This document shows, piece by piece, positions 1 through 10,339 of a stretch of 10,339 nt of DNA. This DNA comes from CAYFZR01 sp046760505 [NCBI: Candidatus Hydrothermarchaeota archaeon] (lineage in GTDB: Archaea; CAYFZR01). Below the pieces are notes generated by a model. The model worked only from the letters and a program-made list of their open reading frames with translations. It was not told where the DNA came from and did no database searches. Numbering within the stretch: position 1 is the first letter of the stretch; every line of letters begins with the position of its first letter. The position numbers and the translations under genes were made by a program. The DNA is taken from the NCBI GenBank assembly GCA_046760505.1, contig JBHIEG010000044.1, positions 1 through 10,339 of the forward strand, in the 5' to 3' direction.

Positions 1-59
1 CTTTCAAAATTACAGAAAAGGGAATTGTAGTCTTTCCGGAGGAAAGAGTCTTTGACTAA
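1..59 (+). CDS. KaiC-like ATPase, C-terminal end only (5' truncated by window)
   Basis: Reading from base 3, the frame encodes FKITEKGIVVFPEERVFD and then stops at TAA 57-59. This is the typical tail of single-domain KaiC/RecA-like archaeal ATPases (PFxIT..GIVV). It matches, with a few changes, the tail KITDKGIVVFPEEKVFGA of the KaiC-like gene at 9046-9849. The ATP-binding part lies outside the window, so catalytic competence cannot be judged. It is followed after 18 bases by another KaiC-like gene on the same strand, which indicates a tandem KaiC pair at the head of, or inside, the KaiC-MinD-secretion ATPase operon. The call rests on about 18 residues, but the match to a complete paralogue in the same window makes it fairly safe. 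Confidence 0.75.
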   Translation, partial: FKITEKGIVVFPEERVFD

Positions 60-65
60 GAATAT

Positions 66-77: not shown

Positions 78-794
78 TTGGAGAAGGTTAACACCGGGAT
101 AAAGGGTTTCGATGAAATCTTGGGAGGAGGTCTTCCAAGAGAGTCAAACATCCTGATAGTTGGCGGTCCTGGCACCGGTAAAACGATGTTTTGCCTTCAG
201 TACCTGTACAAAGGCGCCTATGATTATAATGAGCCCGGAATATACATATCATTGGAAGAAAGAGAAAAAGATCTTAAAAGAAATGTGGAATCATTTGGCT
301 GGGACCTTGATAGTCTCATTAATCAAGGAAAACTTGAGATAATGGATGTGAGCACCACGCTAGTAGATGAGTACGAGGGATCCGATATTTCTCTCAGGGT
401 CATAGACATAGGTTCTCTCATAAATATTATCTTCGAGAGAGTTAAAAGCTTAAAAGCTCAAAGAGTTGCGATCGACTCAATTCCCACTCTTTTCTTACAA
501 TACGATAATCTCTCTTCTGTTAGAAATAATATTTTCAGACTTTGCAATCTATTATTAACAATCGGCTGCACCACCCTTTTATGCTCTCAAGCCGGTATCG
601 GTCAAATTGGAAAGTTTGGAATTGAAGAGTACATTGCTCAAGGAGTAATCGTGCTGAATCTCCAGAGATCCGGTGATAAGCTTGTACGATCTCTTTATGT
701 TCGTAAGATGCGCGGATGTGACCACAGTATGTATGTACATCCCTTTGAGATCACTCCTGAAGAGGGAATCGTTCTGGAGAAGATCATAAGGTGA
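78..794 (+). CDS. KaiC-like single-domain RecA-fold ATPase (ArlH/GvpD/KaiC superfamily)
   Basis: This 238-residue protein is a one-domain KaiC-type ATPase. The N-terminal family motif VNTGIKGFDEILGGGLP (4-20) leads into Walker A GGPGTGKT (29-36). The tandem glutamates characteristic of KaiC follow at 60-61 (SLEERE). Walker B is VAIDS (130-134, Asp133), and the late KMRG plus PFEIT..GIV motifs lie at 210-232. All residues needed for ATP binding are present. It starts at TTG behind GGAGGT. The stop is four bases from the next gene, whose ribosome binding site (AGGTGA) overlaps this stop. The single-domain architecture and the downstream MinD-type and secretion ATPase genes recall ArlH beside ArlI in archaellum operons, so a regulatory or assembly partner of the motor ATPase is a reasonable inference. 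It is not ArlH by identity as far as I can tell. Confidence 0.9.
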   Translation: MEKVNTGIKGFDEILGGGLPRESNILIVGGPGTGKTMFCLQYLYKGAYDYNEPGIYISLEEREKDLKRNVESFGWDLDSLINQGKLEIMDVSTTLVDEYEGSDISLRVIDIGSLINIIFERVKSLKAQRVAIDSIPTLFLQYDNLSSVRNNIFRLCNLLLTIGCTTLLCSQAGIGQIGKFGIEEYIAQGVIVLNLQRSGDKLVRSLYVRKMRGCDHSMYVHPFEITPEEGIVLEKIIR

Positions 795-3069: not shown

Positions 3070-3546
3070 TTAGACTCTTAATCCGGGCTTGAGGAGGATT
3101 TCACATTCTTCTCCAAAAATCTTCAGTTCATGACGATAATCTTTATCGCAGGCTAATTCGATGGCAACACAGAAAGGAACTGCCCTGCCACACTGAATTG
3201 GAATGTTAGATTCTTTCATCCAAGTACAAGCCTGTCTGTAAGGACATTTGCCTCCCACTTTTATGTGTACAGTATCATTCTCTTTTTTAATCTCGAAGTC
3301 GTCTTTATCAAGAAGACCTTCCTTATCAAATATCTCTACATAGTCTCTACAAGCATTGGTAGGATCATCGGTAGGATCAAGTCTTAATCCTCTTTTTTTC
3401 AAGTAAATTTTCACTCCTTCCGACTCAACTAAATGAAAGTATAGTTTTAGGTTTCCAAGTTGTTTGCCTGCATTTGCAATGCCCCATATCCATGCATTCA
3501 TTACATTGAGCACTCCTTCAAGAGTTTTAACCATGGCCCTCACCAT
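3070..3546 (-). CDS. Cysteine-rich protein of uncertain family, possibly a V4R-like or methanogen-output-type sensor domain
   Basis: This soluble 158-residue protein has seven cysteines at 66, 101, 107, 119, 126, 133 and 148. Four sit in a CPYRQAC...CGRAVPFC cluster (101-126), which suggests metal, Fe-S or heme ligation or redox chemistry. The N-terminus is helical, and IANAGKQLG (23-31) resembles the xYNVGxExGR helix of V4R domains encoded upstream in the same operon. It may therefore be a divergent V4R relative, or the 'methanogen output domain' type found in archaeal sensors. I cannot confirm either by eye. The start ATG is fixed by AAGGAG six bases upstream. It is the last gene of the minus-strand cluster and faces the secretion ATPase gene tail-to-tail. 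No signal peptide or membrane segment is seen. Confidence 0.75.
   Translation of the reverse strand: MVRAMVKTLEGVLNVMNAWIWGIANAGKQLGNLKLYFHLVESEGVKIYLKKRGLRLDPTDDPTNACRDYVEIFDKEGLLDKDDFEIKKENDTVHIKVGGKCPYRQACTWMKESNIPIQCGRAVPFCVAIELACDKDYRHELKIFGEECEILLKPGLRV
3358..3379 (-). repeat. Short 12-base tandem duplication inside the Cys-rich gene
   Basis: GGTAGGATCA occurs twice with a period of 12 bases (plus-strand reading). It encodes the doubled DPT in LDPTDDPTNAC. It is in frame, so it looks like a small replication-slippage duplication and not a regulatory site. Confidence 0.6.
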
Positions 3547-3552
3547 CTTTTT

Positions 3553-3558
3553 CTCCTT
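3553..3558 (-). promoter_or_regulatory. Ribosome binding site AAGGAG for the Cys-rich protein
   Basis: On the minus strand AAGGAG is followed by six bases (AAAAAG) and then ATG at 3546-3544. This favours that start over the second in-frame ATG four codons later. Confidence 0.75.
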
Positions 3559-3601
3559 AAGTTTGTGTTGGAACTTCTCATCCTACTTCGCTAATAACGA
3601 A

Positions 3602-3895
3602 CTATACTGGCTTCAGTATATCGACTCTGGTGAGAAATGAAAATCCAAGCCAAAACGATACAGATGTGAATATGAATACCAATTCCAACTGCTCCATCAA
3701 ATCCACATAGATATCAAGCCACTCTATAGTCACGCAAAGCCGTAGTACTGTTAGCGCAATTAGTGCGGTTAACGCAAAAAACCATATCGGGCTTGCTATA
3801 TAAGTTTCTCTATAAATCATTGACGCATAAATTGCTGCTATCAATGATGCTGTGAAACCAATAAATTCTATTCCCGCGATAATAGTTATGTTCAT
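3602..3895 (-). CDS. Small membrane protein, three predicted helices (second of a pair)
   Basis: This 97-residue protein is mostly hydrophobic, with likely membrane helices at about 5-27, 35-55 and 66-88. The short polar segments include YRETYIAS (28-35) and an acidic stretch EWLDIYVDLMEQLE (58-71). I do not recognise the family. It starts with ATG overlapping the stop of the preceding gene in an ATGA arrangement (bases 3892-3895), so the two small membrane proteins are probably made in a coupled way and may form a complex. The helix number, the loop between helices 1 and 2, and an acidic residue near helix 3 are shared with the upstream partner, hinting at an old tandem duplication. A role as membrane anchor or sensor for the GTPase/V4R proteins is inference from position only. 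Confidence 0.82.
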   Translation of the reverse strand: MNITIIAGIEFIGFTASLIAAIYASMIYRETYIASPIWFFALTALIALTVLRLCVTIEWLDIYVDLMEQLELVFIFTSVSFWLGFSFLTRVDILKPV

Positions 3896-4158
3896 TTTAT
3901 CTTCCTCATTTTTTTATGGGAGGTATAACATGCCATTGCGAATATTATACAGCCGATCATTGCGCTAAAATGTTCTAAAAAATTAAATCCCGTTTCCCAT
4001 ACAAAATCCTCAACTATTGTAAAAATACTTTCCAGTAAGAGAAAGGTATACCCGGCAGTTAACCATCTCCATTTTTTATCCGCCTTTACAGTCTGTATCA
4101 TAAAAATAAAACCGGTTGATACCATTGCTAAGGCGAGAACTTCAGCTATTTCCACCAT
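3892..4158 (-). CDS. Small membrane protein, three predicted helices (first of a pair)
   Basis: This 88-residue protein has likely membrane helices at about 4-23, 32-50 and 62-80. There is a basic loop KADKKWR (25-31) between helices 1 and 2 and a strongly basic tail HKKMRKIK (81-88). By the positive-inside rule these place the loop and C-terminus in the cytoplasm. Helices 2 and 3 carry conserved-looking acidic or His residues (LLESIFTIVEDFVW; FLEHF), unusual for a simple anchor and suggestive of a ligand, ion or partner interface. The family is not recognised. ATG is preceded by AGGTGA at a good distance. It lies 31 bases after the small GTPase gene and overlaps the next gene by ATGA. The hydrophobic coding pattern supports a real gene even though it is small. 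Confidence 0.82.
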   Translation of the reverse strand: MVEIAEVLALAMVSTGFIFMIQTVKADKKWRWLTAGYTFLLLESIFTIVEDFVWETGFNFLEHFSAMIGCIIFAMACYTSHKKMRKIK

Positions 4159-4164
4159 TTGCCT

Positions 4165-4170
4165 TCACCT
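4165..4170 (-). promoter_or_regulatory. Ribosome binding site AGGTGA for the first three-helix membrane protein
   Basis: On the minus strand AGGTGA is followed by AGGCAA and then the ATG at 4158-4156. It is a near-ideal match to the anti-Shine-Dalgarno, in the 31-base gap after the GTPase gene. This suggests independent ribosome loading for the membrane pair. Confidence 0.7.
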
Positions 4171-4189
4171 GTCCATGTTCGTCCGCAAA

Positions 4190-4678
4190 TCATTCGATGA
4201 GTTTTAATAAAGCAGCCAGTAACTCTTCTACACCCTCTGCTTCGGTTGCAACGGTTCCTATAACTGGAATTTCTTCTGAAAGATTCATTTGGTCTCTAAC
4301 CAACCAAGGTTTCAAGGCTCCGTGCATATCTTGTTTGTTAGCAGCCACTACAAAGGGAACTTTTCTTTTCAATTCTATTTTATCAAGAATTTCTAACGCC
4401 TCTTGAAAGCTATCGGGGTCAGTGCTATCTACCACAAGTATTATTCCATGGATTCCCATGGAAAGAATCTCATGCATAAATTCAAATTCCCTTCTGCTCG
4501 GAGTACCAAATAAACGCAGTTCTAAGGAGTCAATTTTCCTGTCACCATAGTCAAAACCAATTGTAGTACCTAAACGCTCAACATGTAGGACTTTCTTGGT
4601 TAAAGATTCTACTAAGGTTGATTTTCCCGATCTATAGGTGCCGATCACTATTATCTTTATATCTTGCTTCGATCTCAT
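4190..4678 (-). CDS. Small Ras-like GTPase of the SRPRB/COG2229 type with altered switch II
   Basis: This 162-residue protein (from the ATG) is a Ras-fold GTPase. G1 is GTYRSGKST (13-21), G2 TTIGFDYG (38-45), G4 NKQD (114-117) and G5 GTVATEAEG (141-149), so guanine-nucleotide binding should be intact. The G3/switch II reads FGTPSRREF (57-65). The fused GTPase at 7202-8332 has FGTPGQERF at the same place, so the usual Gly and catalytic-type Gln are replaced by Ser and Arg. Intrinsic hydrolysis may be poor or depend on a partner such as the roadblock protein encoded nearby. Start choice: the frame is open to a GTG at 4717, but ATG 4678 gives the normal short N-terminus. Either start overlaps the V4R gene (by 47 or 86 bases), and no clear Shine-Dalgarno is seen for either. 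Confidence 0.88.
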   Translation of the reverse strand: MRSKQDIKIIVIGTYRSGKSTLVESLTKKVLHVERLGTTIGFDYGDRKIDSLELRLFGTPSRREFEFMHEILSMGIHGIILVVDSTDPDSFQEALEILDKIELKRKVPFVVAANKQDMHGALKPWLVRDQMNLSEEIPVIGTVATEAEGVEELLAALLKLIE

Positions 4679-5222
4679 TTTTTTTAAATTTTCTAAATCT
4701 TTTAACCTCAATCTCACAGTGTGAATCTTTTATTGCTCTACATTTGTTTTCAATGCCGTCTAAGTCTGTTTCAAATGTCTCAATTGCAACGCCTGTGATT
4801 AACCCTCGGAGGATATTGTCAGCAGGATATTTAGTCTTTTGAGATGTCTCTTCCAAAAAATAATCTGCTTCAGGTGGATTTGAAGACCTAACGATTAGAT
4901 GTTTCTCGTCAATGCTCAGCTTCACTATATCCAACAAGCCCCATCCTGCACTTGTTAGATATCTCAAAACAGTCCTTAACAGCTCTTCTGGATCATCTAT
5001 TTTTTTTCCTAACACTGTACCATCTTTGAATTTTCTCGTTAAATACTTGCCATCTTCAATTCCTGCGCTGTACAACACTGCTGCTGCACCTCTTCCCATA
5101 ATTTTTTCCACTTCGGTACAGAGAGTTCCCAAGCCCCCGGTTGAAATCACTATCGATCTAATTCCACCGACTCTTATAACTCCGTTTTTGCTCTCTTCGA
5201 AATTTATTAATTTTTCGATCAT
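4632..5222 (-). CDS. V4R-domain protein (putative small-molecule sensor)
   Basis: This 196-residue protein is essentially a stand-alone V4R (4-vinyl reductase-like) domain. GRGAAAVLYSAGIEDGKYL (43-61) is the helix that matches GTGAAGVLYNVGHESGRR in the V4R of the sensor gene two positions upstream. RGLITGVAIETF (139-150) and cysteines 161 and 169 match the end of the fold. V4R domains are known as ligand-binding modules (for example the phenol/xylene-binding part of XylR/DmpR-type regulators). The frame is open 44 codons further upstream, but that part is the reverse-frame shadow of the roadblock gene. ATG at 5222, eight bases after the roadblock stop, is the sensible start. The charged tail (KKNEIEARYKDNSDRHL) overlaps the start of the GTPase gene. 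Encoded between roadblock and GTPase genes, it is likely an input or adaptor to that switch (inference). Confidence 0.87.
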   Translation of the reverse strand: MIEKLINFEESKNGVIRVGGIRSIVISTGGLGTLCTEVEKIMGRGAAAVLYSAGIEDGKYLTRKFKDGTVLGKKIDDPEELLRTVLRYLTSAGWGLLDIVKLSIDEKHLIVRSSNPPEADYFLEETSQKTKYPADNILRGLITGVAIETFETDLDGIENKCRAIKDSHCEIEVKRFRKFKKNEIEARYKDNSDRHL

Positions 5223-5230
5223 TTTATCGC

Positions 5231-5614
5231 CTATAACGCCTTTAGTATTTCTTCTACTCGCTTTGCAGTTCTTTCCATTTGAATTAGTACCAATCCAAGG
5301 TTTGCATCCTTTTCTACCAACGTTACAAGTAAAGCCTCTTCTCCCGCTCCACATGAAACTATCTTTCCCTGATCACATTCTATTACTGTCTGAGAAAATT
5401 CTCCTTGCTCAAGTTCCTGAGCAGCCATCTCGCTTGTTCCTACTATAGCAGCTGTCATAGCAGCTATCCTTCTTGGATCTACGCCACCGGGTAAATCGTG
5501 AGCAATGATTAAACCGTCTCTTCTCACGATTCCGACCGCTATAATATCTGATAGCTTCCGTAGATCCTTTATCGCACCTTTAAGTTTTACCTTAGGGTCT
5601 CCTACCATTTTCAT
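5231..5614 (-). CDS. Roadblock/LC7-domain protein (MglB-like)
   Basis: This 127-residue protein is a single roadblock/LC7 domain. A first helix with IKDLRKLSDIIAVGIVRRDGLIIAHDLP (15-42) is followed by the diagnostic long helix VDPRRIAAMTAAIVGTSEMAAQEL (45-68). The strands carrying VIECDQGKIVSCGAGEEALLVTLV come next (77-100), then NLGLVLIQM and a final helix. Roadblock proteins dimerise and bind or regulate Ras-like GTPases; bacterial MglB is the GAP for MglA. Two small GTPase domains are encoded in the same cluster, so they are the obvious partners. The start is ambiguous: ATG 5614 overlaps the upstream TGA (TGATG), while GTG 5623 and ATG 5608 are also possible. I chose 5614 for the coupling arrangement. 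No clear Shine-Dalgarno site is seen. Confidence 0.93.
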   Translation of the reverse strand: MKMVGDPKVKLKGAIKDLRKLSDIIAVGIVRRDGLIIAHDLPGGVDPRRIAAMTAAIVGTSEMAAQELEQGEFSQTVIECDQGKIVSCGAGEEALLVTLVEKDANLGLVLIQMERTAKRVEEILKAL

Positions 5615-7146
5615 CAAAACCACTTTTTAATCATAAACTCGCAAAAATCATCACCTTTTCCCTGACATTTTGGCTCTCTACAAACCAGTTCTTCTAGTCC
5701 CAATGCACACTCTGTAAAACCACTCAAATACCCCCTTAGAAAGTGACATACGGACGATTCGGCCCTTCCTTTATAGGGGGCTGTCTCGAAATTGTTCTTC
5801 ACTCTAAGGTCTACAATATTTTTCTCTTTGTCAACGTTTATTTTATCGAGGTCAAACCATGATATTTGGGAAAAGTGAGATTTATAAGCGTTAATTTTCT
5901 CTTCCTCTTTCATTTTACTCCATACTTCTAATAGATAACCGAAACTTCTTCTTCCGCTTTCATGACCCACGTTATACAAAACTCCCGCTGCTCCCGTGCC
6001 GAGAGTTTGAGTTAGTCCTTCATGTAAGGATTCCAGAAAACCTCTAATTTCTTCTGCTGTTTGTCTGAGTTTTTCTTTTGATGCTTTCAACTCCTTCTCT
6101 GCTCGCTTGCGTTCTGTAACATCTAATAAAGAGGCTACGCTCTTTTTTGTTCCGGGAATCATAGCAACAGTTAGAAAGATGTCTTTAATCCTACCATGTC
6201 TGTCAATAAAGCGGAATTCATAGTTTCTCGGCGCAGCATCCTCATCAATCCTTCGAAGACGGTGATACTCTTTCATTTTCTCCAGATCATCTTTCAGGAC
6301 AAATTCAGTCCAGCTCTTTTTACCTTCTATTTCCTCTCTTGAATATCCACTGAGCTCTTCAAATTGGGAGTTAACCATGGAGAGAGTCGTATCTTCTTCG
6401 ATGATCACCGTCGCCGTTCCAGTTGATTCAAAAATTGCGCGGTATTTTTCTTCGCTCTCACGCAACGCCTCTTCCGACAACTTGCGCTCGATGATTTCAG
6501 CCTGTAATATCTCATTGATTTTTTCAAGCTCTACGGTACGCTCCTGAACCCGTATTTCTAACTCCTCGTGAGCTTTCCGCAGTGCTTCTTCCGCCCGCTT
6601 GCGATCTCTCTCCTCTCTATCTCTTTGTAGTCTCGCATGTAGCACAGGAGCTATGTGAGTAGCAATGGTTTCCAACATCTTCTGGTCTTTCTCGGTATAG
6701 TCAGTAGCCTTATTGGCGACCGCGAGAATCCCGATGACATTTTCTTGATGAATTATTGGGACAACTAGAACTCTGAGAATAGGAATATGTCCTTCAGGTA
6801 CACGCAAAGGCTTGTTCGAACAGAGAGTCTTCTTTTCTATGAGAGCCCGGCCCCAGATGCCTCTCCATGCATCGCGGGGGAATACGATGTCCTTGTCGGG
6901 AACTTTGCACTTTTCCCAGATTTCTCTGGTCATGGAGGGGCAGACTAAGGCTCCATCTTCATCAATGTATCCGAAGATCCCGTACTTGCTTTCAACGACT
7001 TGCAGAATGACCTGCAACACTTCTCCGTACATTTCCTCGTCTGGAATAGTGAGAAAGATATTTGCGATCTGGTTCCTTATTGCTAGCTCTCGCTCAGATT
7101 CCAGCAACTGATCCGTCTGCTTCATGTTTTTCTCAATCCTTTTCAT
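5614..7146 (-). CDS. GAF-PAS-V4R sensor protein without a kinase domain
   Basis: This 510-residue cytoplasmic sensor has these domains in order: GAF (about 28-172, with GIWGRALIEKKTL and PIIHQENVIGILAVANK); a charged coiled coil (173-232, with DRKRAEEALRKAHEEL and ERTVELEKINEIL); PAS (233-347, with SEEKYRAIFESTG and ending SLLDVTERK); a short coil (348-368); and V4R (about 369-508, with GTGAAGVLYNVGHESG and terminal Cys489, Cys494, Cys502). No histidine kinase, GGDEF or HAMP module is present, so output must run through V4R or protein contacts. GAF and PAS typically bind small molecules or cofactors; the ligand here is unknown. The start ATG has GGGGGT five bases upstream. The stop overlaps the roadblock start (TGATG), suggesting a sensor-to-roadblock link. 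The GAF/coil/PAS coding region looks richer in G+C than the V4R end, possibly a domain acquired from elsewhere. Confidence 0.92.
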   Translation of the reverse strand: MKRIEKNMKQTDQLLESERELAIRNQIANIFLTIPDEEMYGEVLQVILQVVESKYGIFGYIDEDGALVCPSMTREIWEKCKVPDKDIVFPRDAWRGIWGRALIEKKTLCSNKPLRVPEGHIPILRVLVVPIIHQENVIGILAVANKATDYTEKDQKMLETIATHIAPVLHARLQRDREERDRKRAEEALRKAHEELEIRVQERTVELEKINEILQAEIIERKLSEEALRESEEKYRAIFESTGTATVIIEEDTTLSMVNSQFEELSGYSREEIEGKKSWTEFVLKDDLEKMKEYHRLRRIDEDAAPRNYEFRFIDRHGRIKDIFLTVAMIPGTKKSVASLLDVTERKRAEKELKASKEKLRQTAEEIRGFLESLHEGLTQTLGTGAAGVLYNVGHESGRRSFGYLLEVWSKMKEEEKINAYKSHFSQISWFDLDKINVDKEKNIVDLRVKNNFETAPYKGRAESSVCHFLRGYLSGFTECALGLEELVCREPKCQGKGDDFCEFMIKKWF

Positions 7147-7165
7147 TCTTTACCCCCGTCACTTC

Positions 7166-7180
7166 ATTATTTTTTATTTT
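7166..7180 (-). promoter_or_regulatory. Possible internal TATA-like element before the sensor gene
   Basis: The 55-base gap after the fusion gene contains an A-rich run on the minus strand (AAAATAAAAAATAAT). It ends 19 bases before the sensor ATG. It could serve as an archaeal TATA element giving a short leader, but the GGGGGT Shine-Dalgarno at 7152-7157 would then sit at the very 5' end. It may be only A+T-rich spacer. Confidence 0.22.
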
Positions 7181-7201
7181 AGAGATTTTGGATGAATTTT
7201 G

Positions 7202-8332
7202 CTAGTCGATTTTCATTATCTCGTGAACCAGCCTCTGAAGCACCTCCTCAACACCTTTAGCTTGAGTGGCAACAGTTCCAATTACAGGGACATCAAGTCC
7301 TATTCTCTCAGTGATCTCCTCTATCGATAGGGCATTGGGTAAATCTTGTTTATTCGCTGCTATTACAAGGGGCTTATCTTCTTCAGCAAGTTTTATCATC
7401 TCTTTGGCCCTTTCAAAACTCTCTGGGTCCGTGCTGTCTACTACGAGGACTATCCCCGAGATATCTTTCGCGAAGATATTAAAAATGAATTCAAAACGTT
7501 CCTGGCCTGGAGTACCGAATATTTCAGCCTCGATTTCACTTATCTCCGTGTAACCATGATCGAATGCTATTGTGGTACCCATTCTATCGATGCTAATCGA
7601 GTTAGGACATAGTGCTCTTATAAAAGTAGATTTTCCTGAGTGATATGGTCCGGTAACCAAGATTTTTGGTATATAGGGTACCAATCCATATTTCTCCTTG
7701 AGAATATAGGGTATCCAGCTGGTTCCCGGGATTAGATCGGTTTGTTCTATCCTGAACATGTCAAACCGAATTCCTCCTTTGTAAAATGACTTAAACTCGA
7801 TTACTCCATCAAAAAATTTCTTTATTCTATTCATATCGTTTTGATTCAAGCTCCAATTAGAGAATTTATAAATAGGAGAAAAACCACGATCCTTTGCTAC
7901 CTTATTTGCTAATTGAATAAACTCATCAAGATCGATATCCAAGTCGATGAAGAACTCGAGCGAATTAAAAACGATTCTTCCATTTTCATTCTTGCTAACA
8001 ATCTCAGAGAGTGTTGACAAAAGTTCAGAGGGGTCTGATGGATCTACAGCATATTTTTCCTGGGAAGGCTGTTGCATGCGTGGAGATAAACAATCGATTA
8101 CTAGGAGGGAATCGGTTATTTTAACACCAAAGCGCTCAAAATTCTCTTTAACTCTGTTTGGCCATCGGTAAAAATCAAGATAAATACTGGGCTCATTGTT
8201 TTTAACTCCTTCAGCAATAAATTGTTCTGCGAAAAGAGTTTTTTCAGCAGGGCCGTCACTATATAACAAAAGAGAACAGGGTCTTGGTAAATCACCTATC
8301 CGCTCATCAAGAGCTCGAATGCCTATTCTCAT
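7202..8332 (-). CDS. Fusion: degenerate KaiC-like domain plus Ras-like (SRPRB/COG2229-type) GTPase
   Basis: This 376-residue protein has two P-loop domains. Residues 1-215 follow a KaiC-like layout but with lost catalysis: the Walker A position reads SDGPAEKT (25-32), with the Gly before Lys replaced by Glu, and the Walker B position reads IVFNS (120-124), with Asn for Asp. GTSWIPYI (203-210) matches STSWIPFEI in the preceding KaiC gene, so the domain probably arose from that neighbour. Residues 222-376 are a complete GTPase: G1 GPYHSGKST (228-236), G2 MGTTIAFDHG (251-260), G3 FGTPGQERF (272-280), G4 NKQD (327-330) and G5 GTVATQAKG (352-360). It begins one base after the preceding KaiC stop. 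A likely role, by inference, is that the inactive KaiC half docks on an active KaiC hexamer or ring and links its state to GTPase signalling. The long uninterrupted frame and intact GTPase motifs argue against a pseudogene. Confidence 0.9.
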   Translation of the reverse strand: MRIGIRALDERIGDLPRPCSLLLYSDGPAEKTLFAEQFIAEGVKNNEPSIYLDFYRWPNRVKENFERFGVKITDSLLVIDCLSPRMQQPSQEKYAVDPSDPSELLSTLSEIVSKNENGRIVFNSLEFFIDLDIDLDEFIQLANKVAKDRGFSPIYKFSNWSLNQNDMNRIKKFFDGVIEFKSFYKGGIRFDMFRIEQTDLIPGTSWIPYILKEKYGLVPYIPKILVTGPYHSGKSTFIRALCPNSISIDRMGTTIAFDHGYTEISEIEAEIFGTPGQERFEFIFNIFAKDISGIVLVVDSTDPESFERAKEMIKLAEEDKPLVIAANKQDLPNALSIEEITERIGLDVPVIGTVATQAKGVEEVLQRLVHEIMKID

Positions 8333-8333
8333 G

Positions 8334-9056
8334 TTATATCTCCATGACTATCCCATTATCCGTTATCTCGAATGGAATCCATGAGGTACTATGCTTTACC
8401 CCTTTTAGACTAAAAATGCGGAAAGCGCGCTTTATTCCACTTTCACTTTCGCTCAGCCTTAATTCAAAGATACCATCAGCCATGTACCTGAGAGTTTGAA
8501 CTGTACGTTCATCATGGACTCCTGATTGCAGTACGCATAATCCCGTCATGCCTGATCTTTTAACTCTCGCTGAAAGTATCTCAAAGAATTTTATTATCGA
8601 TTGGGAGCCTGTATCGATCATGAGGTTTGAAAGGCAATCAAATACTAGTCGAGCGTTCTTCAATCCTTGTCTTGCGTCTTCGATTGTTAGGCTAACCTCA
8701 CTCAGATTTGAGGGGCTGTCCACGTAATATTTGGATGTTCTTTTGGATGAAACACGCCAAGAATAGCAGTCAACGAATCTGATCATGTTTTTATCAATGT
8801 ATTGAGATATATCCCACCCGAAAGACCTCATACCTGCTTCTATCGAGTCTATCGGCTCGTCAGTATGCACATACACCGCTGGATATCCTTGAGATAGACC
8901 ATGATACAAGAATTGCTGACAAAAGACAGTCTTTCCTGAGCCAGGAGGGGCTAAGAGCAAAATGAATAACCCTCTGGGCGGATCCCCTTCGATCAGATTA
9001 TCTACATGGGGGAATATAAGTGGTTTTTTATCCTTTCTTGCGTGTTTAAGCGCCAA
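8334..9056 (-). CDS. KaiC-like single-domain ATPase (second of the right-hand pair)
   Basis: This 240-residue protein (from TTG 9056) has Walker A APPGSGKT (36-43) and Walker B RLVFDCLS (136-143, Asp140). The region that carries two Glu in most KaiC proteins reads VHTDEP (63-68), with a single Glu, so hydrolysis may be altered. The N-terminus lacks the usual TGIxGLDEIL motif and has IFPHVDNLIEGDPPRG instead, and the end is PFEITDNGIVMEI. The start is uncertain: TTG at 9080 gives 248 residues, whereas TTG at 9056 is preceded by GGAGG nine bases away and gives an 11-base overlap with the upstream KaiC gene; I prefer the latter. It is followed after one base by the degenerate KaiC-GTPase fusion, which shares its TSWIP-type C-terminal motif. 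The two proteins are probably paralogues acting together. Confidence 0.88.
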   Translation of the reverse strand: MALKHARKDKKPLIFPHVDNLIEGDPPRGLFILLLAPPGSGKTVFCQQFLYHGLSQGYPAVYVHTDEPIDSIEAGMRSFGWDISQYIDKNMIRFVDCYSWRVSSKRTSKYYVDSPSNLSEVSLTIEDARQGLKNARLVFDCLSNLMIDTGSQSIIKFFEILSARVKRSGMTGLCVLQSGVHDERTVQTLRYMADGIFELRLSESESGIKRAFRIFSLKGVKHSTSWIPFEITDNGIVMEI

Positions 9057-9849
9057 ACACCTTTTCCTCCGGAAAGACAACTATCCCTTTATCGGTGATT
9101 TTTAAAGGAAATAGACCTTCTCTAAATTTCATTCCTCTCATTTTGAGCACTTCGATGGCACGCATGCGTTTGTCGTTATGCCTAAAATTGTAAAGCACTA
9201 TGACTCCTTCTGTCATGAATTCTTCTATGCCAAAACGAGAGATCTTATCGCTCCCATAGGGCATTTCAGTGGTTACTAAAGTAGTACATCCAAGATCCTC
9301 GAGTAAATTAAACAAGCCTAGCAACTCCTGCCTTATTATAAAATCATCACTTATCTGAAGTTCCAGGGACGAGAGAGAGTCAATAACGATCCTCTTTGCT
9401 CTTGTTTTCTTTACTTTTTCTGTTATAATCTCAGTAACCGTATCTATATGGAACGGTTCACTGACGGTAAAAACAGACTTTGGTGCTCCAAGAGCCTCTG
9501 CAATAAGGGATCCATCGGGCTGAGTCTCTTTTTCAACCTGATATTGTTTTTGAGGTAATGGTGTTTTTCTCTTGGGTATCAGGCTCAACAAACCTAATTT
9601 GCCCATTCCTTCCAATTTTTCAAGGTCCCAACCAAAAGTCTTCATGTTCCTCTTAATTTTCTCAATTCTCTCTTCAAAAGTAACATATACGCCGTTTTCA
9701 CCTGAATTTATTCCAGCAATTAGAAACTGAACGCAGAATATGCTCTTGCCCGACCCTGGACCGCCGGATATGAGTATAATAGATTTTTCTGGAATGCCTC
9801 CATCAAGGATTTCATCTAACCCATCTATACCTGTGGATACCTTTTTCAT
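9046..9849 (-). CDS. KaiC-like single-domain RecA-fold ATPase (first of the right-hand pair)
   Basis: This 267-residue protein has all KaiC hallmarks: VSTGIDGLDEILDGGIP (4-20), Walker A GGPGSGKS (29-36), tandem Glu59-Glu60 (TFEERIEK), Walker B IVIDS (154-158, Asp157), KMRG (236-239), and PLKITDKGIVV near the C-terminus. An insertion of about 45 residues (90-135, polar and proline-rich at its start) between the core strands is longer than in the plus-strand KaiC at 78-794 and may be a partner-binding loop. The C-terminal tail closely matches the fragment at the left edge of the window. ATG 9849 lies about 26 bases downstream of a TATA-like element, with only a weak Shine-Dalgarno (AGGCAA), compatible with a short-leader or leaderless transcript. 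It appears to be the first gene of the long minus-strand operon. Confidence 0.92.
   Translation of the reverse strand: MKKVSTGIDGLDEILDGGIPEKSIILISGGPGSGKSIFCVQFLIAGINSGENGVYVTFEERIEKIKRNMKTFGWDLEKLEGMGKLGLLSLIPKRKTPLPQKQYQVEKETQPDGSLIAEALGAPKSVFTVSEPFHIDTVTEIITEKVKKTRAKRIVIDSLSSLELQISDDFIIRQELLGLFNLLEDLGCTTLVTTEMPYGSDKISRFGIEEFMTEGVIVLYNFRHNDKRMRAIEVLKMRGMKFREGLFPLKITDKGIVVFPEEKVFGA
9066..9070 (-). promoter_or_regulatory. GGAGG supporting a TTG start for the second KaiC-like gene
   Basis: On the minus strand GGAGG (9070-9066) is followed by nine bases and then TTG at 9056-9054. It lies inside the end of the upstream KaiC gene, where it also encodes the PEE part of the conserved tail. The alternative TTG at 9080 has no good site before it. 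Confidence 0.5.
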
Positions 9850-9922: not shown

Positions 9923-10339
9923 CTAATTTTCTAAAATTCGTAGTTCGGTTTCCAAAAGAGCCAACTCCTTTTTGTCCAAAGCCTCAAAGTCTAATGGAAC
10001 TATAAGGTTTGTATTTCTTTTAGAGACCCTGTCACGTTGGATTTGGAGAAATCTGAGCACTGATGTAAAGCCAATGTTTGTAATCAGATATTCCAAGCCA
10101 TCCAGCAGAATTATGGGGCCCTGACATGCTGCATGGGTTATAAAGCCACTAATTGCCATTGAAATCTCGTGTAGATTGAGTCCGACCGTCATTTCATCCT
10201 TGATCTTCATCTCAGTAAGCCAAAGGATAGGTGTTTTCTCTAGTCCATATGTTTTCCTCACCTTATTTGGCTTGGTCCTTGTAATAACTAAACCACATCT
10301 TCCAGAGGTAACATAATCAAAGAAAACGCCGTAAGCCTT
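9923..10339 (-). CDS. DUF835-domain protein, C-terminal part (5' truncated by window)
   Basis: The frame is open from the right window edge to TAG at 9925-9923, giving 138 residues without a proper start; the GTG at 10261 is internal. The sequence has the DUF835 pattern: a GLVITRTKPNKVRKTYGL region (25-42), TPILWLTE (46-53), LHEISMAISGFI, then PIILLDGLEYLITNIGFTSVLRFL, in which LLDGLEYL is a Walker B-like strand, and a closing LDKKELALLETELRIL. DUF835 is common in archaeal signalling proteins, often behind PAS, GAF or receiver domains, and looks like a RecA/KaiC-type fold without a P-loop. The N-terminal part outside the window could hold sensor domains. It precedes the KaiC/GTPase operon on the same strand with a 73-base gap containing a promoter-like element, so it could be co-regulated. 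Confidence 0.88.
   Translation of the reverse strand, partial: KAYGVFFDYVTSGRCGLVITRTKPNKVRKTYGLEKTPILWLTEMKIKDEMTVGLNLHEISMAISGFITHAACQGPIILLDGLEYLITNIGFTSVLRFLQIQRDRVSKRNTNLIVPLDFEALDKKELALLETELRILEN

What the first reader, a model, noticed from the sequence alone, without database searches (positions are those of the whole stretch)
3070..9849. Kinase-independent signalling cluster: KaiC ATPases, GTPases, roadblock, V4R sensors and membrane pair
Ten consecutive same-strand genes combine two ATP-competent KaiC-like proteins, a pseudo-KaiC-GTPase, a kinase-less GAF-PAS-V4R sensor, a roadblock protein, a free V4R, a second GTPase, two tiny membrane proteins and a Cys-rich protein. Most junctions overlap or are within a few bases, so the products are probably made together. 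The set suggests sensing routed to a GTPase/roadblock switch (like MglA/MglB polarity control) and KaiC rings rather than to two-component phosphorelay. I do not recognise it as a named system.
Basis: partly seen in the sequence, partly recalled or inferred. Interest (0 to 1): 0.8.

Follow-up and report, generated by a model that had tools for sequence, protein, structure and literature searches.

The report
Archaeal GTPase–KaiC–roadblock signalling operon
A tightly packed archaeal gene cluster encodes a small switch protein (GTPase) welded to a dead KaiC domain, together with its likely control protein, sensor proteins and working KaiC motors; the welded protein and its control protein travel together in many groups of archaea, so this looks like a widespread, little-studied signalling module.

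Summary
A DUF835 gene lies upstream, cut by the window edge.

The core is conserved. The pseudo-KaiC–GTPase K has 45 full-length relatives in archaeal genomes of at least five phylum sets, on one side of a 99/97 branch with window K. None of the 45 has GK[ST] in the KaiC loop; all keep the GTPase loop, 44 the catalytic Gln. A same-strand roadblock gene lies within 100 bases in 44 of 45; in the 45th a contig end cuts it. A KaiC gene lies within 900 bases in 30 of 45.

V4R joins roadblock elsewhere in fusions and neighbouring genes, but is directly beside only 1 of 45 fusions. The H model resembles MopR/PoxR sensors most, Bet3/TRAPPC3 less. D, E, F and G are not shown to belong.

Best reading: a roadblock-controlled GTPase on a KaiC platform, fed by V4R sensors; pilus-type output is weakly supported. 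New variant of a known kind.

The parts
9923..10339 (-). N: DUF835 (PF05763) gene, 5' end cut by the window; 73 bases upstream of M, same strand; possible first gene of the operon
   Evidence: Pfam 99.3 bits, cut-off 33.1; spacing. PMC5847659 (passages) lists DUF835 as an inactivated KaiC-like domain.
9046..9849 (-). M: KaiC-family ATPase, Walker A and B intact
   Evidence: Pfam KaiC 233.7 bits; GPGSGKS, IVIDSL, TFEE. A KaiC gene of A/M type lies upstream of the fusion within 144 bases in 7 of 45 relatives.
8334..9080 (-). L: KaiC-family protein, Walker A intact; TTG start uncertain (alternative TTG 9056)
   Evidence: Pfam KaiC 137.9 bits; PPGSGKT, LVFDCL, no match to the catalytic-Glu pattern used. 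KaiC genes that match L best lie beside many relatives of K.
7202..8332 (-). K: pseudo-KaiC domain fused to a small GTPase of MglA group 2-5 type; core of the module
   Evidence: Pfam KaiC 2-128 and Arf/Ras 223-371; 45 full-length relatives compared, all on one side of a branch with K.
5614..7146 (-). J: GAF-PAS-V4R sensor protein without kinase domains
   Evidence: Pfam GAF_2 70.0, PAS_3 37.8, V4R 45.4 bits, no HisKA/HATPase; no H-box or D.G.G match to the patterns used.
5231..5623 (-). I: roadblock/LC7 (MglB-like) protein; GTG 5623 start, or ATG 5614 or 5608
   Evidence: Pfam Robl_LC7 61.1 bits, cut-off 23; NCBIfam MglB of Thermus E 1.7e-6, far below its cut-off; roadblock chains in PDB from E 9.2e-16, MglB 3t1s at E 0.0048.
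4632..5222 (-). H: free V4R-like protein, 196 aa from ATG 5222
   Evidence: Pfam V4R 20.4 bits, below cut-off 31; AlphaFold2 model pLDDT 88.9; VIA-align Z about 20 to MopR/PoxR/DmpR, 13.8 to MJ1460, about 12 to Bet3/TRAPPC3.
4190..4717 (-). G: stand-alone Arf/Ras-like GTPase with degenerate switch II (GTPSR in place of GTPGQ); start GTG 4717 or ATG 4678
   Evidence: Pfam Arf 62.9 bits; motifs; outside the fusion group in the tree, place unsure.
3892..4158 (-). F: small membrane protein, 88 aa
   Evidence: Weak 7TMR-DISM_7TM match, 18.9 bits, cut-off 29; overlaps E by 4 bases.
3602..3895 (-). E: small membrane protein, 97 aa
   Evidence: Hydrophobic by sequence; no family.
3070..3546 (-). D: protein with 7 Cys, 158 aa, no family
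   Evidence: No Pfam match; AlphaFold2 without alignment failed, pLDDT 36.9; loose resemblance to the V4R Cys pattern in an alignment, not significant.
78..794 (+). A: KaiC-family ATPase (convergent cluster; possible output side, inference)
   Evidence: Pfam KaiC 246.8 bits
799..1506 (+). B: MinD/ParA-family ATPase (convergent cluster)
   Evidence: Pfam CbiA 72.8, ParA 66.5 bits
1508..3046 (+). C: type II/IV secretion (TadA/PilB-like) ATPase (convergent cluster); stops 23 bases from the end of D
   Evidence: Pfam T2SSE 173.9 bits; 50-52% identical to ATPases in G270, G370 and 11 genomes whose fusion loci are of one type (nine of those loci have a prepilin-like gene).

Best explanation
The operon encodes a sensor-controlled GTPase switch built on a KaiC platform. 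K is the switch: its GTPase half cycles between GTP and GDP, and its dead KaiC half docks it to the KaiC ATPases L and/or M, probably as mixed rings or stacks. Roadblock I, as a dimer like MglB, sets the nucleotide state of K. The V4R proteins J and H bind a small molecule (or, in J, read Cys/metal redox state) and act on roadblock I. G, whose switch II has lost Gly and Gln, is probably a slow or locked partner or competitor on the same roadblock. E and F may tether the complex to the membrane. A possible but unproven output is a type IV pilus-like machine, of which an ATPase, a MinD and a KaiC are encoded convergently. Shown: gene content, conserved K-roadblock linkage, dead KaiC motifs and mostly intact GTPase motifs, modelled sensor fold of H. 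Inferred: every contact, the direction of signalling, and the output. Likelihoods: K-I switch about 0.8; KaiC half as docking part 0.6; V4R input through roadblock 0.5; pilus-type output 0.3.
For: Roadblock gene on the same strand within 100 bases of the fusion in 44 of 45 loci, and a partial roadblock match at the contig end in the 45th (G106). KaiC gene within 900 bases in 30 of 45. Window K and the 45 fusions lie on one side of a branch with 99/97 support. In 45 of 45 relatives the KaiC loop lacks GK[ST] while G1 is intact, and 44 of 45 keep PGQ, against TPGQ in 12 of 42 other GTPase rows, of which two are contig-cut fusions, two bacterial and a few distant GTPases. Roadblock I resembles MglB-type proteins. 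V4R-V4R-roadblock in one frame in two genomes (L145, L146); V4R next to a roadblock gene in L147 and L148; V4R beside the roadblock of a contig-cut fusion in L022 and beside a full fusion in L057. H model matches aromatic sensor domains at Z about 20. Pilus link: T2SSE ATPase within 10 kb in L060 and L079; prepilin-like genes within 5 kb in 10 of 45 loci, none in 229 kb farther out or 397 kb of other loci. In Myxococcus MglA and SgmX recruit PilB to the leading pole (PMC11580455, abstract).
Against: J separates K from I in the window; in the relatives K and roadblock are adjacent. V4R was found within 10 kb of only 2 of 45 fusions. 15 of 45 fusions have no KaiC gene within 900 bases. Many KaiC genes beside the fusion themselves lack the standard loop, so live rings are not assured, and L lacks a clear catalytic Glu. 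10 of 45 fusions depart from NKxD in G4 (five read ANFQN, five NKxN), so guanine preference may differ there. T2SSE within 10 kb of 2 of 45 is about what a few ATPase genes per 1-1.5 Mb genome would give by chance (my estimate). 9 of the 10 prepilin loci are of one type, and the prepilin pattern was chosen after some of these genes had been seen. H lacks the first Cys and the Gly of the V4R signature. No transcript, binding or biochemical data exist here.
Confidence: 0.5

Rival explanations
1. KaiC hub reading: M and L are the signalling core (as in proposed archaeal KaiC hubs), and the GTPase, roadblock and V4R genes are inputs that tune KaiC ATPase or phosphorylation state; the GTPase half is subordinate.
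For: Four KaiC-type genes lie in the window besides K's KaiC half, counting the DUF835 gene; in L114 the order is KaiB-like, KaiC, fusion, roadblock, KaiC; PMC5847659 (passages) cites KaiC ATPases as a proposed archaeal signalling hub.
Against: 15 of 45 fusions stand without a KaiC gene within 900 bases, while a roadblock gene is there in all 45, counting one cut, so GTPase plus roadblock is the more constant part.
Confidence: 0.25
2. Membrane-shaping reading: the GTPases, roadblock and TRAPPC3-fold V4R proteins recruit one another to a membrane site (vesicle or envelope remodelling), an archaeal counterpart of TRAPP/Ragulator-type control, with E/F as the anchor.
For: H model matches Bet3/TRAPPC3 and the Thorarchaeota TRAPPC3 at Z about 12; PMC10933270 (passages) says TRAPPC3-like and V4R-like domains are likely to share an ancestor; stand-alone GTPases of the type nearest to K by identity (up to 53% over 158 columns) lie near VPS28 and a ubiquitin-conjugating-domain gene in L120.
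Against: PoxR/MopR sensors match far better (Z about 20); no longin domain in the ten proteins; the DUF2073 and DUF2072 partners of the known archaeal vesicle GTPase were not found.
Confidence: 0.15
3. Chance packing: only K, I and KaiC genes form a module; J, H, G, F, E and D are unrelated passengers in a compact archaeal genome.
For: D, E and F have no relatives in 64 related loci; small membrane genes not enriched; V4R near 2 of 45 fusions.
Against: All gaps are 55 bases or less; V4R-roadblock fusions and neighbours recur elsewhere; J lies between K and I without breaking the run.
Confidence: 0.1

Closest known systems
MglA/MglB polarity switch (Myxococcus, Thermus)
   Same: MglA-type small GTPase plus roadblock protein; K has the GTPGQ motif and a Thr where group 1 has Arg, as PMC4316618 reports for groups 2-5 (passages)
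   Different: GTPase fused to a dead KaiC domain; V4R/GAF/PAS sensors in the operon; no receiver-domain protein among the genes scanned
Actinobacterial conservons (CvnA-D)
   Same: Sensor, roadblock and Ras-like GTPase encoded together (abstract start of PMC13343842 in a listing)
   Different: No histidine-kinase-like CvnA and no DUF742 protein found; KaiC and V4R instead. That CvnC is DUF742 is recalled; a DUF742 gene was seen under a GTPase match
MglA-type operon on Thermus brockianus plasmid pTB1
   Same: Small GTPase, roadblock and protoglobin sensor genes side by side
   Different: Haem-type sensors, DUF4388 and EAL proteins; no KaiC in the 6.5 kb shown
Archaeal KaiC-like ATPases and pilus-associated KaiC/roadblock genes
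   Same: PMC4858521 (passages; section 14) reports KaiC families and roadblock arCOG02603 near archaeal pilus loci
   Different: Its main text has no 'V4R' and one 'GTPase', an FtsZ-family one, so no such fusion is described there; the 2017 KaiC survey (mBio 8:e01959-17) was not held
ArvABC vesicle GTPase operon (Haloferax)
   Same: Archaeal small GTPase in an operon with two partners (PMC10927574, passages)
   Different: Partners are DUF2073 and DUF2072 proteins, not roadblock, V4R or KaiC
PoxR/MopR sensor domains; MJ1460; TRAPPC3/Bet3
   Same: Fold of the H model
   Different: No regulator domains attached in H; ligand and any GEF role untested

Membership tests
MglA family, groups 2-5 | G1, G2 Thr, GTPGQ in G3, NKxD in G4 | tested here: met
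   K: GPYHSGKS, MGTTIAFD, FGTPGQERF, ANKQD; definition from PMC4316618 passages. G fails at G3 (GTPSR).
MglA family, groups 2-5 | Coupled roadblock/MglB gene | tested here: met
   I in the same run of genes; 45 of 45 relatives counting one cut gene
MglA/MglB | Roadblock stimulates GTP hydrolysis or exchange | not testable with these tools
   needs protein
Roadblock/LC7 (PF03259) | Score above Pfam cut-off | tested here: met
   61.1 bits against 23
Thermus MglB equivalog (NF052242) | Score above NCBIfam cut-off | tested here: not met
   28.2 bits against 200
KaiC ATPases | Walker A and B in M and L | tested here: met
   the catalytic-Glu pattern matched M only
KaiC ATPases | Walker A and B in the KaiC half of K | tested here: not met
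   Window loop shortened (Lys-Thr kept), Walker B Asp to Asn; GK[ST] absent in 45 of 45 relatives
V4R (PF02830), protein J | Score above Pfam cut-off | tested here: met
   45.4 bits against 31
V4R (PF02830), protein H | Score above Pfam cut-off | tested here: not met
   20.4 bits against 31; fold agrees, so a V4R-like fold rather than a curated member
Two-component histidine kinase | HisKA/HATPase domains in sensor J | tested here: not met
   none
TRAPP complex | TRAPPC3-type fold | tested here: inconclusive
   Z about 12, below PoxR/MopR at about 20
TRAPP complex | Longin heterodimer subunits | tested here: not met
   no longin family in the ten proteins; the roadblock fold is related
Actinobacterial conservon | CvnA kinase-like protein and CvnC (DUF742, recalled) | tested here: not met
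   absent
ArvABC | DUF2073 and DUF2072 partners | tested here: not met
   absent; definition
Type IV pilus locus | Secretion ATPase, TadC platform, prepilins | tested here: inconclusive
   ATPase present; no TadC or prepilin among the window genes scanned; the plus-strand cluster runs off the window

The most novel reading that the evidence does not exclude
Archaea of several phyla share a GTPase switch whose effector arm is a dead KaiC subunit that joins live KaiC rings, with a roadblock protein as its constant regulator; in this lineage it has joined TRAPPC3-fold V4R proteins, giving an operon-encoded small GTPase + roadblock + V4R set that could be a sensory forerunner or cousin of TRAPP/Ragulator control.
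Probability: 0.2. Interest if true: 0.85.

Novelty: new variant of a known kind. Interest (0 to 1): 0.6.

Why it matters
Small GTPases with roadblock partners, and KaiC ATPases, are two archaeal signalling families with few known outputs. A conserved protein that joins them physically, found here always next to its likely regulator, gives a defined set to purify and test. PMC10933270 (passages) says that in the Asgard archaeon MK-D1 small GTPase genes generally do not lie in operons with roadblock, longin or TRAPPC3 genes, which makes partners hard to match; here the operon names candidates.

Tried and rejected
Finding the window's organism: no whole genome is held; searches with K in the phylum sets of G001, G278, G370, G041, G158 (227 genomes, which include G462-G469 of the G278 set) and G198 gave no close copy. 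The best full-length K match is 39% identical. Only 5 or up to 8 candidates per genome were scored, so counts are lower bounds.

First scans of genome contigs and viral contigs with K found nothing; an alignment of K with G found L001 only. A plasmid search gave 67 records, the named organisms all bacterial, none covering 80% of K.

Homology of E and F to tandem small membrane genes in L075, L083 and L161: not supported, no significant match, and no enrichment near the fusion. D as a V4R protein: not supported. Whole-cluster conservation: not shown; only K plus roadblock, and partly KaiC. Separate origin of the window fusion: not favoured by the tree, although K's highest identity is to a stand-alone GTPase. 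A note said 13 of 29 genomes in the first phylum set; the listing gives 12 of 29.

Not in print: seven library searches listed no paper whose title or abstract start describes the pseudo-KaiC–GTPase fusion. I saw listings, passages and one section only; the 2017 KaiC survey most likely to mention it was not held. So novelty of the fusion is not established.

Full report
WHAT IS THERE. The minus strand from 9849 to 3070 carries ten genes in one run: KaiC ATPase M, KaiC-family L, pseudo-KaiC–GTPase K, GAF-PAS-V4R sensor J, roadblock I, free V4R-like H, GTPase G, small membrane proteins F and E, and Cys-containing D. Gaps from stop to next start lie between -86 and 55 bases. Domain calls rest on Pfam. 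A DUF835 gene lies 73 bases upstream on the same strand and runs off the window. The plus strand carries KaiC A, MinD-type B and type II/IV secretion ATPase C, ending 23 bases from D; the first bases of the window read as the end of another KaiC-like protein, FKITEKGIVVFPEERVFD.

THE FUSION IS A FAMILY. Searching archaeal genomes with K gave full-length relatives in 12 of 29 genomes of the first phylum set, in 38 of 394 genomes of a wider kinship set that includes those 12 (G370 has a fragment only), and in 7 of 227 genomes of another phylum set. Smaller phylum sets gave 3 of 34, 3 of 10 and 1 of 23 plus a fragment; those hits were already found. Only the best 5 or 8 candidates per genome were scored. 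L120, from the 227-genome set, has VPS28 (60.4 bits, cut-off 24.5) and a ubiquitin-conjugating-domain protein with weaker UEV and Vps23-core matches near a stand-alone GTPase, which suggests that this set is Asgard archaea (inference). The 45 full-length copies (38 + 7) were compared. None has GK[ST] in the KaiC loop; all 45 keep GxxxxGK[ST] in the GTPase; 44 keep the Gln of G3, L079 being the exception; 10 depart from NKxD in G4. The window copy keeps Lys-Thr in a shortened KaiC loop, has Asn for the Walker B Asp, and has all G motifs. In a tree of 89 GTPase domains window K, the 45 fusions and two contig-cut pieces lie on one side of a branch (99/97); G lies outside with an unsure place, and the tree warns of long branches.

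THE ROADBLOCK PARTNER. A same-strand roadblock gene lies within 100 bases in 44 of 45 loci. In L060 the contig ends 454 bases after the fusion, and a partial roadblock match (24.4 bits) sits at that end (G106). The order differs: downstream of the fusion in most loci, upstream in L059, L062-L066, L068, L069, L071-L073 and L079, on both sides in L061, so the link has survived rearrangement. In the window J lies between K and I. A KaiC-family gene lies within 900 bases in 30 of 45, on the same strand in 27; of the 15 without one, ten are in the first phylum set, four are in genomes of 0.6-0.9 Mb (L076, L077, L078, L080), and one is L060. In L114 a KaiB-domain gene (29.7 bits, cut-off 27) precedes the set.

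THE V4R LINK. V4R genes are common in these genomes (41 of 47 have a match) but were found within 10 kb of only 2 of 45 fusions: L057, directly upstream, and L074, 3.8 kb away (own profile, many contigs short). A contig-cut fusion in L022 is followed by roadblock and V4R. Independent support: two proteins with two V4R domains and a roadblock domain in one open frame (L145, L146), and V4R genes next to a roadblock gene in L147 and L148. The model of H (pLDDT 88.9) matches the phenol sensors MopR, PoxR and DmpR at Z about 20, the archaeal V4R protein MJ1460 at 13.8, and Bet3/TRAPPC3, including Thorarchaeota TRAPPC3, at about 12; Foldseek also puts MopR, PoxR and DmpR first. By profile the V4R alignment finds MJ1460, PoxR and MopR first and Thor TRAPPC3 at E 0.0037. 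A ligand sensor is therefore the first guess for H, a TRAPP-like role the second. H lacks the first Cys of the signature (PAD for PVC); J has it.

THE SECOND GTPASE. G keeps G1, G2, G4 and G5 but reads GTPSR in G3. Loss of the Gln alone is common in the other GTPase rows (TPGQ in 12 of 42, a set that holds two contig-cut fusions, two bacterial proteins and a few distant GTPases; many of the rest read GTPGL or GTPGH), so G may belong to a class that switches without its own Gln. GTPSR was not seen among the 30 other stretches printed.

OUTPUT. The case for a type IV pilus-like output rests on the convergent A-B-C set in the window, on T2SSE ATPases within 10 kb of the fusion in L060 and L079, MinD genes in L061, and prepilin-like genes within 5 kb in 10 of 45 loci (11 genes in 370 kb) against none in 229 kb farther out and 397 kb of other loci. 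Against it: ATPase neighbourhood is near chance by my estimate, nine of the ten prepilin loci are of one type, the pattern was chosen after seeing some of them, Pfam named none of the six prepilin-like proteins sent as pilins, and no such gene was found near the fusion in the fetched loci of the first phylum set. I put this output at about 0.3.

WHAT IS NOT SHOWN. D, E and F have no phmmer relatives in the 64 loci searched. Tandem small membrane genes stand next to roadblock, V4R or KaiC genes in L075, L083 and L161, but are unlike E and F in sequence, and such genes are not enriched near fusions. D has no fold assignment.

LITERATURE. PMC4858521 (passages; section 14) links KaiC families and a roadblock arCOG to archaeal pilus loci. 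PMC4316618 (passages) describes group 4 MglA proteins as almost exclusive to methanogenic Euryarchaeota and GTPGQ as shared by groups 2-5. PMC5847659 (passages) treats inactivated KaiC domains. PMC10933270 (passages) gives the TRAPPC3–V4R relation. PMC10927574 (passages) gives ArvABC. PMC11580455 (abstract and outline) gives MglA control of PilB. None of the passages read describes the fusion; the main KaiC survey of 2017 could not be read.

VERDICT. It is a new variant of a known kind, worth testing because the likely partners are encoded together.

Noticed in passing
window 1-60, +: The first bases read FKITEKGIVVFPEERVFD-stop, very like the C-terminus of M, so another KaiC gene probably precedes A and the plus-strand set would have two KaiC genes.
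   Followed up: partly
L120:2330-13471; similar gene starts in L123-L125: Stand-alone GTPases of the type nearest in identity to K's GTPase half stand near VPS28, a ubiquitin-conjugating-domain gene, an AN1 zinc finger and an ABC transporter set (only L120 was scanned with Pfam).
   Followed up: partly
L145:6739-7989 and L146:6407-7879: Proteins with two V4R domains and a C-terminal roadblock domain in one open frame.
   Followed up: partly
L059:9888-10646: One open frame of 252 aa holds both a prepilin-like start and a roadblock match; whether this is a true fusion was not decided.
   Followed up: no
L026:11118-11642, with genes of similar start in L027, L028, L030-L032: A gene of this type follows the fusion-roadblock pair, or is close to it, in several loci of the first phylum set; the L026 copy is DUF2226 by Pfam.
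   Followed up: no
L114:8077-8367: KaiB-domain gene at the head of a KaiC-fusion-roadblock-KaiC set; genes with similar sequence starts stand at the same place in L115, L116, L118 and L122.
   Followed up: partly
L126:8113-9972, L127-L130: A stand-alone GTPase with GTPGH in G3 (printed for four of the five) is preceded by two genes of about 170 aa that look like membrane proteins (in L127 the first is cut); five loci of five genomes.
   Followed up: no
L166:2345-6477 (Thermus brockianus pTB1): DUF4388, small GTPase, two protoglobin-domain genes, roadblock and EAL genes in a row: a bacterial sensor-roadblock-GTPase set.
   Followed up: no
L062:6215-7105 and genes of similar start in loci of that type: A TPR-repeat protein follows the roadblock-fusion-KaiC-KaiC set in this type of locus (only the L062 copy was scanned).
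   Followed up: no
Fusion GTPases in L074, L076, L077, L078, L080 and in L001, L023, L030, L032, L070: Unusual G4: the first five read ANFQN, the other five NKxN, so nucleotide preference may vary in the family.
   Followed up: no
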